Shown one piece after another: positions 16,617-54,889 of a stretch of DNA of 64,000 nt; positions within the stretch are counted from its first letter, which is position 1, and each line of letters begins with the position of its first letter. The position numbers and the translations under genes are program-made. Origin of the DNA: Mangrovibacillus cuniculi (GTDB taxonomy: Bacteria; Bacillota; Bacilli; Bacillales; R1DC41). The DNA is taken from contig NZ_CP049742.1 in the NCBI RefSeq assembly GCF_015482585.1, positions 826,501-890,500 on the forward strand, read 5' to 3'. The notes beneath the pieces are model-generated. The model was not told the origin of the DNA. It saw nothing but the letters and a program-made list of their open reading frames with translations, and did no database searches.

Positions 16617-16660
16617 TTGGTGATCTTTTGATGAGATTTATGTAAGAGAGGATTACGTTG

Positions 16661-16885
16661 CTTTCTTTCGTTTGTTTGGGTTTGTTGCGTAGTTATTTTA
16701 TAGTAAGGAGACTCATCTAAGTACGGACCACACTGCTTTCTTTCGTTTGTTTGGGTTTGTTGCGTGGTGATCTTATAGTAAGGAGACTCATCTAAGTACG
16801 GACCACACTGCTTTCTTTCGTTTGTTTGGGTTTGTTGCGTGGTGATTTTATAATAAGGAGACTCATCTAAGTACGGACCACATCA
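16661..16885. repeat. Three tandem 75-bp repeats
   Basis: The unit starts CTTTCTTTCGTTTGTTTGGG and recurs at 16661, 16736 and 16811, exactly 75 bp apart, with only a few differences. Each unit ends with GACTCATCTAAGTACGG and ACCAC. The third copy runs on into a complete three-stem motif; the first two break off inside its second stem. No open reading frame is convincing here. Confidence 0.9.
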
Positions 16886-16920
16886 CGTGGTCAACGATGA
16901 GTTGTTACGTCACGTAACAA
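16862..16920 (+). repeat. Family-3 three-stem motif, copy A
   Basis: P1 is CTCATC (16862-16867) paired with GATGAG (16896-16901). Within it are the joining segment TAAGTACG, hairpin P2 GACCAC-ATCAC-GTGGTC (16876-16892) and AAC. P3, TTGTTACGTCACGTAACAA (16902-16920), follows at once. Stems are perfect. It abuts the terminator of the minus-strand small RNA. Confidence 0.8.
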
Positions 16921-17058
16921 AAAATCCCCATGGAAACCATGGGGGTCCTTCTATATCCTTAGAGGAAAGAAGGTAAAGGGAGAGGAGAAACCGGAGGAAG
17001 AACTTATGGGGAAACGTAAGTCTTCTCCGCGGTTGGCAACACCAACCAAATGATGTTG
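16918..17058 (-). ncRNA. csfG: Probable CsfG-type forespore small RNA
   Basis: A transcript of about 140 nt is predicted on the minus strand between ylbG and ylbH (rsmD), where the sporulation-specific small RNA CsfG maps in B. subtilis (known from the literature). A sigma-F-like promoter (GTATA at 17090-17094, 14 bp, GGTGATAATGG at 17065-17075) leads into it. The RNA would have a 5' hairpin GTTGG-TGTTG-CCAAC, long pyrimidine-rich stretches with anti-Shine-Dalgarno-like CCTCC, and a perfect terminator CCCCATGG-TTT-CCATGGGG followed by A and six T (16919-16944). I do not remember the CsfG sequence well enough to align it. Confidence 0.6.
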
Positions 17059-17196: not shown

Positions 17197-18264
<1,068 letters not shown>

Positions 18265-18266
<2 letters not shown>

Positions 18267-18325
18267 GTTACATGATCAGTAATAACTCATCGTTAGACAC
18301 GTGATGTGGCTTTCTCTTAGAAGAG
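18265..18325 (-). repeat. Family-3 three-stem motif, copy B
   Basis: Read on the minus strand: P1 CTCTTC/GATGAG with one mismatch, TAAGAGAA, P2 with loop ATCAC and one mismatch, AAC, and P3 ending GTAACAA. It fills the space between the coaD terminator and the ylbJ stop, sharing two bases with the T-run. Confidence 0.6.
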
Positions 18326-18330
18326 TCTGC

Positions 18331-19545
18331 TTACACACTCTTTATTCTTCGCCACAATAAAATGGTGTATAGAGATAGAGAGAAGATGGTAATAATTGGT
18401 CCAAAGGTCACAAACCATTGATAAACAGACGATGCGATTTCTTGCACATTTTGCTGAAATACAGGTATTGCAGTAGATGGGACGTCGTTATATTGAAATT
18501 TAGAAAATACCACTTTCCATAACACTAACGTAATGATACTTGCAAATACGCCGTGCATAATTCTTGCCATAAAGAAAGGCTTAAATCGAATATCTGTTTC
18601 TGCTAATATACTAGCAACTTGTGCTTGGACACTAAAGCCACTAAATGCAAGAATAAAGCTTGTCACAATCGCTTGTTGAAGTAAAGTGGCTGTCTCCACC
18701 TGACTAGTTAATTGACTTCCAAGAGTTATTTCAAAGATTCCGGATATATAAGCCATTGTCATAGCTGGATCTAATCCCAATAAAGTAAAAATAGGCTTTA
18801 AGTTTTCAGCAAAAAAAGGAGTAACGTGTAGTAAAAAGAGTAGTTTATTCAATACAGAAAACAAAATAATAAAGCCACCAATCATTAGTAATGATTGAAT
18901 GCTAGAAGAAACAGCCTCTCCAAGTAACTTTCCAATAGGCTTATTGTTATTCATCCGAGTCTTATGCATGACTCGTAACGCTTCTTTAATCGAAAACTTA
19001 GATTTATCAATAGGATGATCAATTTCATCTCTTCCATGAAATCGCATAAACATACCAACAAAGATATTTCCGGCATAGTGAGCTATAGCTAGTAAAATTC
19101 CGAGTGTTGGGTTAAAAAAGAATCCGACAGACACAGCACCAAAAATAAACAATGGATTCGAGCAGTTTGTAAAAGAAACTAATCGTTCTGCTTCAATTCT
19201 AGTTAAGGTTCCTTCCTTTCTTAACCTAGCTGTTAATTTTGCTCCGGAAGGGAAACCAGATGCCATACCCATTGCCCAAACAAATCCCCCAACTCCAGGC
19301 ACCTTAAATAACGGTCGCATTAGAGGCTCTAACAGGATACCAATAAAGCGAACAACACCTAAGCTAATCATCATTTCTGAAACAATAAAAAATGGTAATA
19401 ATGATGGAAAGACTATCTCCCACCACATATGGAGTCCTCTTGTTGAGGCTTGGAAAGAGTCTTGCGGAAATAAAATCAATGAAACAGCCAAAAGTAATAC
19501 TGCGGATGCGAGTGTAATTGTTTGTACTTTACTTGTAGTAATCAA
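18331..19545 (-). CDS. ylbJ: Sporulation integral membrane protein YlbJ
   Basis: YlbJ is a polytopic membrane protein with two Gate (nucleoside-recognition) domains, needed for heat-resistant spores in B. subtilis and produced in the mother cell under sigma-E. This 404-residue homologue has about ten hydrophobic segments and the motifs WAMGMASGFPSGAKLTARLRKEG and GSQL in the second repeat. The start codon is TTG at 19545 with AGGGGG upstream. It points against coaD and ylbK, as in B. subtilis. I see no confident sigma-E promoter. Confidence 0.88.
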   Translation of the reverse strand: MITTSKVQTITLASAVLLLAVSLILFPQDSFQASTRGLHMWWEIVFPSLLPFFIVSEMMISLGVVRFIGILLEPLMRPLFKVPGVGGFVWAMGMASGFPSGAKLTARLRKEGTLTRIEAERLVSFTNCSNPLFIFGAVSVGFFFNPTLGILLAIAHYAGNIFVGMFMRFHGRDEIDHPIDKSKFSIKEALRVMHKTRMNNNKPIGKLLGEAVSSSIQSLLMIGGFIILFSVLNKLLFLLHVTPFFAENLKPIFTLLGLDPAMTMAYISGIFEITLGSQLTSQVETATLLQQAIVTSFILAFSGFSVQAQVASILAETDIRFKPFFMARIMHGVFASIITLVLWKVVFSKFQYNDVPSTAIPVFQQNVQEIASSVYQWFVTFGPIITIFSLSLYTILLWRRIKSV

Positions 19546-23046: not shown

Positions 23047-23080
23047 TGCCGCGGCTGAATGCGCGGCGTAAGCTTTTGTT
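23047..23080. repeat. Remnant of a family-2 repeat end
   Basis: GCCGCGGCTGAATGCGC followed by GGCGTAAGCTTTTG copies the right end of the 124-bp repeats that lie 100 bp downstream. Only this end is left, fused to a family-3 motif. Confidence 0.6.
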
Positions 23081-23136
23081 ACGTGACCGGTAACAACTCG
23101 GTGTTGACCACGTGATGTGGTCTGATCTTAACCGAG
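23076..23136 (-). repeat. Family-3 three-stem motif, copy C
   Basis: Read on the minus strand: P1 CTCGGT/ACCGAG (all six pairs kept but three differ from copy A), TAAGATCA, P2 GACCAC-ATCAC-GTGGTC, AAC, and P3 TTGTTAC/GTAACAA with loop CGGTCAC. Confidence 0.75.
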
Positions 23137-23161
23137 TATCCTTAATAATTACTTAGGTTTT

Positions 23162-23533
23162 CGTGGTGTCTAGCTTCCGGTGCGCAGATGCTCGGCAAAC
23201 TCAGATGGCCCTGTGGTGGCTGAGGAGCTGCCTCCTCGGTCCCTCCAAGTTTGCTGCCGCATCTAAACGCGCGCCTTCAGCTTTTCGTGGTGTCTAGCTT
23301 CCGGTGCGCAACCGCTTGGGAAACTCTGAAAGCCCTCCGGTGGTTGAGGAACTACCTCCTCGGTCTTCCAGAGTTTCCTGCCGCGGCTGAACGCGCGCCG
23401 TACGCTTTTCGTGGTGTCTAGCTTCCGGTGCGCAGATGCTCGGCAAACTCAGATGGCCCTGTGGTGGCTGAGGAGCTGCCTCCTCGGTCCCTCCAAGTTT
23501 GCTGCCGCATCTGAACGCGCGCCGTACGCTTTT
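23162..23533. repeat. Three tandem 124-bp hairpin repeats (family 2)
   Basis: Units begin at 23162, 23286 and 23410, each exactly 124 bp, with CGTGGTGTCTAGCTTCCGGT at the start and CGCGCG then GCTTTTC at the end. Units 1 and 3 are nearly identical; unit 2 differs at many places but keeps the long inverted repeat (GCAAACT/AGTTTGC in units 1 and 3; GGAAACTCTG/CAGAGTTTCC in unit 2). G+C content is far above the local average. No coding region is supported. Confidence 0.9.
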
Positions 23534-23554
23534 CTATGATGTAAAGAAAATATA

Positions 23555-51759: not shown

Positions 51760-52707
51760 TTGACCATTTACGCTGATGCTATCTGGGTATTGAACTTTGG
51801 GATGGACAGCCTATTACTATGGATGACAGCTAGATTCTTGAAGCGGAAAATAGGTGTTTTAAGAATTTTGTTAGGTGGTTTTATTGGATCTTCCATTGTA
51901 CTATTCTCGTTTTTTCCTTCATTAGACTGGACGCAAAGTATACCTAGTAAAATTGCTTTATCTTTTCTTATGATACTAGCTACTTTTGGTCGTTCTAGAA
52001 TAAAGACCTTCCTTAAGAGACTTTTTACATTTTATTTAGCAACATTTTTAGCAGGAGGTGCTTTGTTAGGTATTCACTACTTGATTACTTTCGAATTGTC
52101 ATTTCAAGCAGCATATCATTTAGCGAACCAAAAGGGATTTGGTGATCCAGTAAGTTGGTTGTTTATTATTCTGGTTTTACCTCTTGTTTGGTTTTTCTCA
52201 ACTGGAACAGTTCGTACATTAGAAACAACTAAAATTCAACATGACCAAAAATTTACGGTGAGTCTTTCGTTAGGAGAATTTCATTGGAAAGGGACTGGAT
52301 TATTAGACACTGGTAATAAAGCGTGTGATCCCGTTTCTGGTACACCAGTTATTGTTGTATCTATAAAAGATTCAAAAGAGTTGTTTCCAAAAGAATTTGT
52401 TCATTGGGTATCTCAAGAAGACGAGCAATTACATCACTTAGAAGAGTTATCCGATTCCCTAAAAGATAAAATTAGAATGATTCCGGCAACATCGTTAGGT
52501 AGACAAAACCAGTTATTAATTGGATTTAAGGCAGATGAGGTAGAAATTCTCTCTGAAAAAGAATATATGCGTGCTAAACGCGTTTTATTAGTGTTTACCA
52601 TGAGGTCATTATCTGCAGACAAAGAATTTGATGTCATTTTACATCAGAAAATGTTCCAAGAAGCACAGGTGATATCAGAAACAGAAATGATTGCCACATT
52701 ATCTTAA
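51760..52707 (+). CDS. spoIIGA: Sigma-E processing peptidase SpoIIGA
   Basis: SpoIIGA is the membrane-embedded aspartic protease that removes the pro-sequence of sigma-E after a signal from the forespore. The 315-residue protein has five N-terminal membrane helices (residues 1-150) and a C-terminal cytoplasmic protease domain with the catalytic motif [12 protein letters not shown] and later [16 protein letters not shown]. The start is TTG at 51760 with GGAG nine bases upstream. It is followed by sigE 13 bases later, the conserved spoIIG operon. Confidence 0.94.
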
Positions 52708-52720
52708 AGGGGGAGTTAAC

Positions 52721-53440
52721 ATGAAAACATTGCGCTTACGTTTACAGTATTTTTGGACAAAATTATTAATGAAATTAGGGATTAAGTCTGACGAGATATA
52801 CTACATTGGAGGAAGCGAAGCACTTCCACCACCTTTGTCTAAAGAAGAAGAAGAATTATTGCTCGGTAAATTGCCAGGTGGGGATAAAACAGCAAGATCT
52901 CTTTTAATTGAACGTAATTTAAGATTGGTAGTTTACATCGCTAGGAAATTCGAAAATACAGGGATAAATATAGAAGATTTAATTAGTATTGGAACTATTG
53001 GATTAATTAAAGCGGTCAATACGTTTAATCCTGAGAAAAAAATTAAGCTTGCTACATATGCATCGAGATGTATTGAAAATGAAATTTTGATGTACTTAAG
53101 AAGAAATAATAAAATCCGGTCGGAAGTTTCCTTTGACGAACCGTTAAATATCGATTGGGATGGAAATGAGTTACTGTTGTCAGATGTGTTAGGTACGGAA
53201 GAAGATATAATAACAAAAGATTTAGAGGCGAATGTAGATCGTAAACTATTGTTTAATGCGCTACATCAATTAACGGAGAGAGAGAAACAAATCATGGAGC
53301 TGCGTTTTGGTTTGCAAGGACAGGAAGAGATGACACAAAAAGATGTAGCCGATTTACTGGGTATCTCTCAATCATACATTTCCCGCCTAGAAAAAAGAAT
53401 TATCAAGCGTTTGAAAAAAGAATTTAATAAAATGGTTTAA
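52721..53440 (+). CDS. sigE: RNA polymerase sigma-E (mother-cell, early)
   Basis: Sigma-E directs early mother-cell transcription. It is made as an inactive 239-residue precursor, the same length as in B. subtilis. The amphipathic pro-sequence ([20 protein letters not shown]) is intact, and the processing region [17 protein letters not shown] is nearly identical to the known one. Regions 2 ([20 protein letters not shown]) and 4 ([20 protein letters not shown]) are clear. The ATG at 52721 follows AAAGGGGGAG; an earlier in-frame ATG at 52691 lies inside spoIIGA. Confidence 0.97.
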
Positions 53441-53893
53441 AGAAGAGGCTGAGACCAAAGTGAAAAGGTACATTCGAAATAACGAATGTACCTTTTGAAC
53501 GTTTTATATTATAAAACTGCAGAATTAGTGCCTATACATAATAAGTCTTTGGTATTGGAGCGGAAGGGGGCGACTCCTACGGGAAAGGTGGGTTACTGAG
53601 ACCCCACAGGAGCATGAACTACCGCGACGAGAGCGATGTCTAGCTCCAGGTGCGCAGATGCTCGGCAAACTCAGATGGCCCTGTGGTGGCTGAATTGTGG
53701 GACCTTCTGCTAAATACCGGTGACATCACGTCACCAACGCAGAAGACAGTACCTCACGTACAAGCCCTCGGTCCCTCCAAGTTTGCTTCCGCATCTAAAC
53801 GCGCGCCTTCCGCTTTTCAATACAGCAACCCACCCCGTGGAAAGCGTCCCCCTGGAGCGGAAATCCCTGTGCAGTCTCTTTTGGTTTTTTCAT
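53441..53893. repeat. Family-1 repeat, copy 4, with nested family-2 and family-3 repeats
   Basis: The family-1 element starts AGAAGAGGCTGAGACC right at the sigE stop, with the GGTACATTC/GAATGTACC hairpin (53462-53495) and the usual internal blocks. At about 53638 a family-2 unit begins (TGTCTAGCTCCAGGTGCGCA), and its centre is replaced by a family-3 motif (53705-53761); the family-2 right half (CCTCGGTCCCTCC to CGCGCG) resumes near 53766. The family-1 right end (GTGGAAAGCG, GGAGCGGAAATCCC) closes at 53893. Short open frames here are not genes. Confidence 0.8.
53705..53761 (+). repeat. Family-3 three-stem motif, copy D
   Basis: P1 TTCTGC/GCAGAA, joining segment TAAATACC, P2 GGTGAC-ATCAC-GTCACC and AAC repeat the layout of copy A with changed but still paired stems. 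P3 is reduced to GTAC-CTCAC-GTAC. Confidence 0.7.
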
Positions 53894-54112: not shown

Positions 54113-54889
54113 ATGACAAGAAACAAAGTGGAAATCTGTGGAGTAGATACGTCGAAGTTACCTGTATTAAAAAATGAGGAAATGCGTGAGTTATTTCGTC
54201 AAATGCAATCAGGTGAGACGTATGCTCGAGAAAAGTTAGTAAACGGAAATTTACGACTTGTTCTTAGTGTAATACAAAGGTTTAACAATCGAGGAGAATT
54301 TGTGGATGATTTATTCCAAGTTGGATGCATTGGGTTAATGAAGTCTATTGATAACTTTGATTTAGGACAAAATGTAAAATTCTCTACTTACGCTGTACCG
54401 ATGATAATTGGAGAAATAAGACGTTACTTACGTGATAATAACCCAATTCGAGTGTCTAGATCATTGCGTGATATTGCTTATAAAGCACTACAAGTAAGAG
54501 AACGTTTAATGGCTTTAACTTCTAAGGAACCTACTGCAGAAGAAATTGCAAAAGAGCTTGATGTGTCACATGAAGAAATTGTATTTGCTTTAGATGCTAT
54601 CCAAGATCCTGTTTCATTGTTTGAGCCTATTTATAACGATGGAGGAGATCCTATCTTTGTCATGGATCAGCTCAGTGATGAAAAAAATCGTGATATTCAA
54701 TGGATTGAAGAGATTGCTTTAATGGAAGGCCTTAGAAGGTTAAATGAACGAGAGAAACTAATTATTAGGAAACGTTTCTTTCAAGGGAAGACCCAAATGG
54801 AAGTCGCTGATGAAATTGGAATTTCGCAGGCACAAGTATCTCGATTAGAAAAAGCAGCTATTAAACAAATGAATAAAAACATTCAGTGA
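54113..54889 (+). CDS. sigG: RNA polymerase sigma-G (forespore, late)
   Basis: Sigma-G drives late forespore transcription after engulfment. This 258-residue protein starts MTRNKVEICGVDTSKLPVLK, the typical region with no pro-sequence, and has region 2 (LRLVLSVIQRFNNRGEFVDD), region 3 and region 4 (GISQAQVSRLEKAAIKQMNK). In B. subtilis sigG lies close behind sigE; here 672 bases of repeats separate them. A strong ribosome binding site is present but can be paired in a hairpin. Confidence 0.97.
   Translation: MTRNKVEICGVDTSKLPVLKNEEMRELFRQMQSGETYAREKLVNGNLRLVLSVIQRFNNRGEFVDDLFQVGCIGLMKSIDNFDLGQNVKFSTYAVPMIIGEIRRYLRDNNPIRVSRSLRDIAYKALQVRERLMALTSKEPTAEEIAKELDVSHEEIVFALDAIQDPVSLFEPIYNDGGDPIFVMDQLSDEKNRDIQWIEEIALMEGLRRLNEREKLIIRKRFFQGKTQMEVADEIGISQAQVSRLEKAAIKQMNKNIQ

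What the first reader, a model, noticed from the sequence alone, without database searches (positions are those of the whole stretch)
16862..16920. A compact three-stem motif repeated four times with covarying stems
Copies lie at 16862-16920 (+), 18265-18325 (-), 23076-23136 (-) and 53705-53761 (+). In motif orientation all four have: a 6-bp stem P1; an 8-nt joining segment starting TAA (TAAGTACG, TAAGAGAA, TAAGATCA, TAAATACC); a 17-nt hairpin P2 whose loop is ATCAC in every copy; AAC; the 3' side of P1; then hairpin P3, with TCAC in its loop in three copies. P1 changes but stays paired in three copies (CTCATC/GATGAG, CTCGGT/ACCGAG, TTCTGC/GCAGAA). P2 does so too (GACCAC/GTGGTC against GGTGAC/GTCACC). 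Conserved loops with compensated stems suggest selection on a folded RNA or single-stranded DNA. I do not recognise it as a known family.
Basis: partly seen in the sequence, partly recalled or inferred. Interest (0 to 1): 0.78.

Follow-up and report, generated by a model that had tools for sequence, protein, structure and literature searches.

The report
Hairpin repeats inserted behind transcription terminators
The four motifs are copies of a short folded repeat, a variant of a known Rfam family listed as a small RNA, and in this bacterium it looks like a mobile DNA element that lands, in a fixed orientation, right behind transcription terminators.

Summary
In detail: all four copies exist, with P1, P2, P3 and real covariation (12 of 18 pairs change on both sides in 24 copies). 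It is not unknown: Rfam RF01690, Bacillaceae-1 ("Gene; sRNA"), hits three of four over its cut-off. The genome carries at least 148 copies. Their loops read RTCAC where the Rfam consensus has UCCU; a strict pattern for the ATCAC form gives 75 matches here and none in 396 other genomes of the order.

New is the placement. Of 133 copies of the common type, 113 are followed at once by a stable hairpin, against 33 preceded by one; typically an A-run lies between, i.e. hairpin plus T-tract on the other strand. The A-run belongs to the host: in 12 relatives the ylbH leader has A-run plus hairpin with no element at that junction, and repeat arrays show empty and filled junctions. Stem mismatches are near symmetric (57 G.T, 48 A.C), so no sign of an RNA strand.

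I read it as a REP-like mobile DNA element targeting hairpin plus T-tract. Its enzyme is unidentified: no reverse transcriptase or DUF772 match, and one Y1 transposase gene without copies around it.

The parts
16853..16923 (+). Copy 1, common type (A). Element proper about 16857-16918 (GGAGACTC...GTAAC); ends at the A-run of the ylbH leader
   Evidence: R1 93.1 bits; RF01690 41.8 bits at 16851-16918
16919..16944 (.). Host target of copy 1: A-run (16919-16924) and hairpin 16926-16944 at the start of the ylbH leader; read on the - strand it is hairpin plus T-tract
   Evidence: RF00516 at 16915-17032; terminator-like site on the - strand at 16944-16926; same A-run plus hairpin in 12 relatives
16659..16882 (+). 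Tandem array of three 75-bp units, each with the 5' half of the element, running into copy 1
   Evidence: Tandem Repeats Finder, 96% matches; 5'-half pattern hits at C1:843207 and C1:843282
18262..18334 (-). Copy 2, type A, decayed; lies between the convergent genes ylbJ (-, ends 18331) and coaD (+, ends 18251)
   Evidence: R1 78.3 bits; ORFs; gene names are from my reading of the translations
18230..18266 (.). Hairpin and A-run between copy 2 and coaD: the terminator-like site behind which copy 2 sits
   Evidence: read from sequence
23073..23145 (-). Copy 3, type A, in the last junction of an array of the long repeat; AAAA at 23158-23161 and at 23074-23077
   Evidence: R1 95.0 bits; RF01690 38.3 bits; sequence
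23158..23534 (.). Array of three units (124 bp) of the long dispersed repeat (LR); its two inner junctions read CACCACGAAAAGC and lack the element
   Evidence: Tandem Repeats Finder; sequence
53696..53766 (+). Copy 4, type B, inside one LR copy, between the ORFs 52691-53440 and 54113-54889 (both read as sigma factors)
   Evidence: R1 62.3 bits; RF01690 36.6 bits; five type-B copies identical over 66 nt in the genome

Best explanation
The motif is a lineage-specific variant of the repeat that Rfam calls Bacillaceae-1, and in this genome it behaves as a small non-autonomous mobile DNA element of about 64-70 bp (REP-like), not as an ordinary sRNA gene. Shown: at least 148 copies, sharp ends, a strongly preferred site (an A-run directly followed by a hairpin on the motif strand, i.e. 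hairpin plus T-tract on the other strand, mostly terminators of opposite-strand genes), fixed orientation to that site, and filled/empty comparisons at one orthologous site and two repeat arrays. Inferred: the element folds as single-stranded DNA into P1-P2-P3; an unidentified enzyme acting in trans recognises the two RTCAC loops and joins the element to an A-tract next to a DNA hairpin. The change of both loops from the UCCU form to RTCAC across the family in this genome would then be co-evolution with, or a switch of, that enzyme.
For: (1) Placement: of 133 type-A copies, the 50 nt directly after the motif fold to -9 kcal/mol or better in 113, against 33 of 133 directly before, 34 of 133 and 34 of 132 one window further out; a stem of 8 bp or more starting within 8 nt occurs in 64 of 133, against 10 of 133 on the mirrored 5' side and 3.8% of shuffles. 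(2) Orientation: an opposite-strand gene ends 0-70 nt past the motif's 3' end in 67 of 147 copies, a same-strand gene starts there in 4 of 147. (3) Orthologous site: the ylbH leader was found in 12 of 14 named loci scanned; in all 12 it opens with an A-run and hairpin, with unrelated DNA in front; in the window the element ends exactly at that A-run. (4) Arrays: the window's LR junctions read GAAAAGC where empty; the filled one has AAAA on both sides of the insert; the array at C1:1371 kb shows the same (three empty, one filled). (5) Site need not be a gene end: two copies lie directly behind the regulatory hairpin of opposite-strand T-box leaders (C1:1914992, 1962293; T-box recognised by me from the sequence). 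(6) Strand test: 57 G.T against 48 A.C mismatches in the stems of 114 distinct copies (p 0.44), while the ylbH leader control gives 20 against 6.
Against: No enzyme was found and no recent transposition between close strains could be tested, because no genome of the same family is held. Type-A copies are rarely identical (of the common type only one duplicated locus, present as a tandem pair, and one other pair match over 66 nt), so activity may be past. The array comparison is imperfect: the filled junction in the window carries 12 further bases, and AAAA on both sides may be a duplication or a split A-run. Selection against other landing sites could sharpen the bias. In the classical family, outside the loop-closing pair, mismatches are 7 G.T to 2 A.C, and the loop-closing pair is G.U in 24 cells (26 sequences), which leans towards RNA there. 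About half of the adjacent hairpins (48 of 95) also have a T-rich stretch on the motif strand, so they could serve a motif-strand transcript.
Confidence: 0.72

Rival explanations
1. A functional RNA: the element is transcribed on the motif strand, in the 3' UTR of the upstream gene before a bidirectional terminator, or as an sRNA as Rfam files it, and its loops bind a protein.
For: Rfam type 'Gene; sRNA'; Weinberg et al. 2010 rate it 'Y' as an RNA (Table 1 passage). In 36 of 147 copies the genes on both sides converge, and in 13 of 147 a same-strand ORF ends within -6 to +10 nt of the motif start. Half of the hairpins could terminate motif-strand transcripts (48 of 95). Classical copies show G.U at the loop-closing pair.
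Against: In 97 of 147 copies the ORF on the 5' side is on the opposite strand, so no obvious motif-strand transcript exists (crude ORF calls). Stem mismatches are symmetric in this genome. Copy number varies from 0 to at least 31 within an unnamed genus.
Confidence: 0.12
2. A mobile repeat that has been put to use: copies behind terminators serve as insulators, supercoil sinks (as proposed for REP/BIME in E. coli, recalled) or back-up stops, and selection keeps them there.
For: The very regular position behind terminators and persistence of degenerate copies there.
Against: Many copies are decayed (scores run down from 97.6 to 28 bits), copy 2 barely folds, and the ATCAC form was seen in one of 397 genomes.
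Confidence: 0.1
3. Insertion is not targeted; copies survive only where harmless, i.e. between a terminator and the next gene.
For: Intergenic gaps behind terminators are plausible safe sites.
Against: The register is too exact: A-runs of 5 or more by my count in 100 of 133, then a hairpin; the same register in the ylbH leader, LR arrays and T-box leaders, which are not gene ends.
Confidence: 0.05

Closest known systems
Bacillaceae-1 RNA, Rfam RF01690 (Weinberg et al. 2010, PMC2864571, Table 1 passage seen)
   Same: AAGGA start, P1, TAAG joint, P2, AAC, P1', P3; three of the four window copies over the gathering score; 24 copies over it in the genome
   Different: Both loops are RTCAC instead of UCCU; here mostly stand-alone next to A-run plus hairpin, whereas the copies I read from G031, G079 and G100 look embedded in larger repeats (read by eye)
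REP elements and their RAYT transposases (PMC2817692, PMC3733652, passages seen)
   Same: Short, high-copy, intergenic, palindromic, stems kept by complementary changes
   Different: No GTAG or CGTC head recognised; more complex (three stems, two like loops); the only Y1_Tnp gene has no copies in its 3.3-kb locus and no match within 30 kb
Group IIC introns (PMC10190682, passages seen; terminator preference recalled and listed papers)
   Same: Target is a DNA stem-loop plus a short tract next to it
   Different: 70 bp without ribozyme domains; no reverse transcriptase match in the genome
IS1272 (IS1182 family) stem-loop replacing transposition (PMC5678879, passages seen)
   Same: Inverted repeats are the target, no common target sequence
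   Different: Here the hairpin is kept and the insertion is beside it; no DUF772 match in the genome
MITEs such as bcr1 of Bacillus cereus (named in PMC3733652 passage)
   Same: Small, non-coding, dispersed, folded
   Different: No terminal inverted repeats seen at the two ends; no parent IS found

Membership tests
Bacillaceae-1 (RF01690) | Score over the Rfam gathering cut-off (35 bits) | tested here: met
   3 of 4 window copies; 24 of 31 matches at E <= 0.001 in the genome; copy 2 not met
Bacillaceae-1 (RF01690) | P1-P2-P3 architecture with TAAG and AAC joints | tested here: met
   alignments; pair counts
Bacillaceae-1 (RF01690) | Loop consensus RUCCU in both hairpins | tested here: not met
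   P2 loop ATCAC in 99 of the copies tallied by position, P3 mostly GTCAC, TTCAC or ATCAC; Rfam consensus shows CGUCCUG and CaUCCUG
Bacillaceae-1 (RF01690) | Expressed small RNA | not testable with these tools
   no transcript data
REP element with RAYT | Copies flanking a Y1 (RAYT) transposase gene in inverted orientation | tested here: not met
   one Y1_Tnp gene; no element in L039 by loop pattern. Across 150 genomes RF01690 occurs in 65 of 124 with and 13 of 26 without Y1_Tnp (six of the 26 deduced by subtraction)
REP element with RAYT | High-copy intergenic palindrome with preserved pairing | tested here: met
   11 of 147 lie inside an ORF of my crude caller, most of these in repeats
Group IIC intron or derivative | Reverse transcriptase / maturase in the genome | tested here: not met
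   PF00078 none (assembly 98% complete)
IS1182/IS1272-type mobilised element | Transposase with DUF772 and replacement of the target hairpin | tested here: not met
   PF05598 none; target hairpins retained
MITE | Target site duplication | tested here: inconclusive
   AAAA on both sides in two arrays; the usual 5' flank is only about AA

The most novel reading that the evidence does not exclude
Bacillaceae-1 as a whole is not an sRNA gene family but a class of single-stranded-DNA hairpin elements moved by a still unknown enzyme, whose recognition or cleavage signature is the shared loop of both hairpins; each lineage changes loop and enzyme together, and in this lineage the element has left the larger repeats and become a terminator-seeking element. 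Hint: several broken 5' halves stop directly behind the loop (ATCAC| at C1:1298289, 1298443, 1353567, 1962246, 1050916; ATAAC| at 1051050), and one UCCU-type copy behind GTCCT (L258); but that scan asked for the loop, and other partial arrays break elsewhere (window 16707 and 16782, C1:1914844, C1:697 kb).
Probability: 0.35. Interest if true: 0.78.

Novelty: new variant of a known kind. Interest (0 to 1): 0.55.

Why it matters
If right, an Rfam sRNA family should be re-read as mobile DNA, and covariation alone should not be taken as proof of an RNA. It also gives a small, countable case of targeting to DNA hairpin plus T-tract, a site type otherwise known from group IIC introns, without a reverse transcriptase in the genome. 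The clean loop change in one lineage offers a handle for finding the enzyme.

Tried and rejected
Rejected: unknown RNA family (Rfam hit). RAYT mobilisation (no copies at the gene, no association across genomes). Group II reverse transcriptase and DUF772 transposases: no match. Autonomous copies with a gene inside: half-element searches gave 111 3' halves and 116 5' halves, 100 listed each; among those listed I saw no 5' half separated from its 3' half by a gene, and nine listed 3' halves are not in the list. Plasmids: blastn with one UCCU-type and one ATCAC-type copy found nothing. Replication strand: copies fit a two-switch strand pattern in 127 of 147, but I chose the switch points by eye from the same data; of 67 copies near an opposite-strand gene end 63 fit and 4 do not, and those 4 follow the gene. 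First scan for broken copies used a faulty pattern and was discarded; the replacement required the loop. A scan for further 5' halves gave only chance-like hits. An automatic fold of 130 aligned copies gave no structure in the sense strand and only four pairs in the antisense, an alignment failure; I relied on fixed positions.

Limits: gene neighbours come from a crude ORF caller (80 aa or more, longest first). One of 148 matches (C1:2933167, E 0.004) was not fetched. Fetched DNA surrounds known copies, so '9 of 27 LR starts carry the element' is not a genome-wide rate. A-run lengths below 5 include cases such as AAAAG, which my counter scores 0. R1 misses UCCU-type copies (it did not report that of L040). 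L059 has a UCCU-type copy about 220 nt behind its ylbH leader on the other strand, not at the A-run.

Literature: 'Bacillaceae-1' (11 papers) and 'RF01690' (5 papers) in the held open-access library; passages of PMC2864571, PMC8208703, PMC9029176 seen. Together I met no statement that this family is mobile or terminator-linked, but I read passages only, no supplements, and most subscription papers are not held. That the motif has been noted next to rRNA operons is recalled, not seen.

Full report
What is there. The four copies and their stems are as described. A model of 24 copies shows strong covariation and finds 148 matches in the 3.15-Mb genome, a lower bound since only 150 candidates were scored. 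Rfam names the motif: RF01690, Bacillaceae-1, over the cut-off for copies 1, 3 and 4 and for 24 places in the genome.

How it differs from the family. Rfam's consensus loops contain UCCU. Here the P2 loop is ATCAC and the P3 loop mostly GTCAC, TTCAC or ATCAC. A strict pattern of the ATCAC form gives 75 matches in this genome and none in 396 other genomes of the order. In G031, twelve or more listed copies share the same score of 77.9 bits. The UCCU-type copies that I read from G031, G079 and G100 appear to sit inside larger dispersed repeats.

Where the copies sit. I fetched 147 of the 148 and called ORFs crudely. Neighbour strands relative to the motif, 5' side then 3' side: (-,-) 79, (+,-) 36, (-,+) 14, (+,+) 11, with no 3' neighbour in 7. 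An opposite-strand gene ends within 70 nt of the 3' end in 67, a same-strand gene starts there in 4. Ten copies are type B, inside a longer repeat (LR); 133 are type A; four are nested or irregular. Behind type A comes, as a rule, an A-run and then a hairpin: 113 of 133 fold to -9 kcal/mol or better in the next 50 nt, against 33 of 133 on the 5' side. Read from the other strand this is hairpin plus T-tract, the form of an intrinsic terminator. The 5' end is sharp at AAGGA.

The A-run is the host's. The ylbH leader (RF00516) was found in 12 of 14 named loci scanned. In all 12 it begins with an A-run and a hairpin, and the DNA before it differs between relatives; in the window the element ends exactly there. 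The coaD-ylbJ gap is 79 nt with copy 2; in 27 relatives it ranges from 1 to 393 nt by my ORF calls, with no R1 match in any of the 36 relatives' loci except one elsewhere in L059. In the window's LR array two junctions read CACCACGAAAAGC and the third carries copy 3 between AAAA and AAAA; at C1:1371 kb three empty junctions and one filled show the same. Two further copies lie directly behind the regulatory hairpin of opposite-strand T-box leaders. Together these show insertion at a pre-existing site, though without strain-level proof.

RNA or DNA. In this genome stem mismatches are 57 G.T against 48 A.C in 114 distinct copies, not different from even (p 0.44). The ylbH leader, taken as an RNA control, gives 20 against 6. 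For 26 UCCU-type copies the count is 7 against 2 outside the loop-closing pair, too few to decide and leaning the other way; the loop-closing pair is often G.U. So the DNA reading is supported for this genome and open for the family.

Mechanism. Shown: dispersal, sharp ends, site preference, fixed orientation. Inferred: single-stranded DNA folding, a trans-acting enzyme, and the loops as its signature. No reverse transcriptase and no DUF772 protein was found. The one Y1 transposase gene has no copies around it, and Y1 presence does not go with RF01690 presence: 65 of 124 against 13 of 26. Partial copies that stop behind the loop hint at the loop as a joining point, but the scan was biased and counter-examples exist.

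Verdict. A known Rfam family in a new, lineage-specific form, best read as a terminator-seeking mobile DNA repeat.

Noticed in passing
L039 (C1:2434935-2438222): The genome's only Y1_Tnp (RAYT-like, 195 aa) gene lies next to an array of another repeat (GGCTT.GGCGACTTGCCG...), which may be that enzyme's own REP; the same repeat is seen beside the copies at C1:132 and C1:382052.
   Followed up: partly
window 23158-23534 and 53600-53830: Long dispersed repeat (LR, about 124 bp, TCTAGCTCCAGG...GCGCGCCTTCCGCTTTTC) with its own nested complementary arms, in tandem arrays; similar-looking ends occur in the repeats that hold Bacillaceae-1 in other genomes.
   Followed up: partly
C1:1914600-1915120 (L011) and C1:1962000-1962420 (L010): Copies and partial arrays inserted behind the regulatory hairpin of T-box leaders on the opposite strand, i.e. 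inside a leader ahead of the controlled gene; T-box recognised from its sequence, not by a search of these loci.
   Followed up: no
C1:2582934, 844762 (window 18334) and 11 others: In 13 of 147 copies a same-strand ORF ends within -6 to +10 nt of the element's start; in the two I read, the stop codon is the TAA at the element's own 5' end.
   Followed up: partly
C1:1050700-1051350, 1298050-1298620, 1352950-1353720, 1817950-1818480: Nested and tandem arrays of element halves and extra hairpins, with the last complete copy next to the hairpin.
   Followed up: partly
L053:3979-5923: A group II intron (RF02003, RF00029) a few kb upstream of ylbH in Neobacillus rhizophilus.
   Followed up: no
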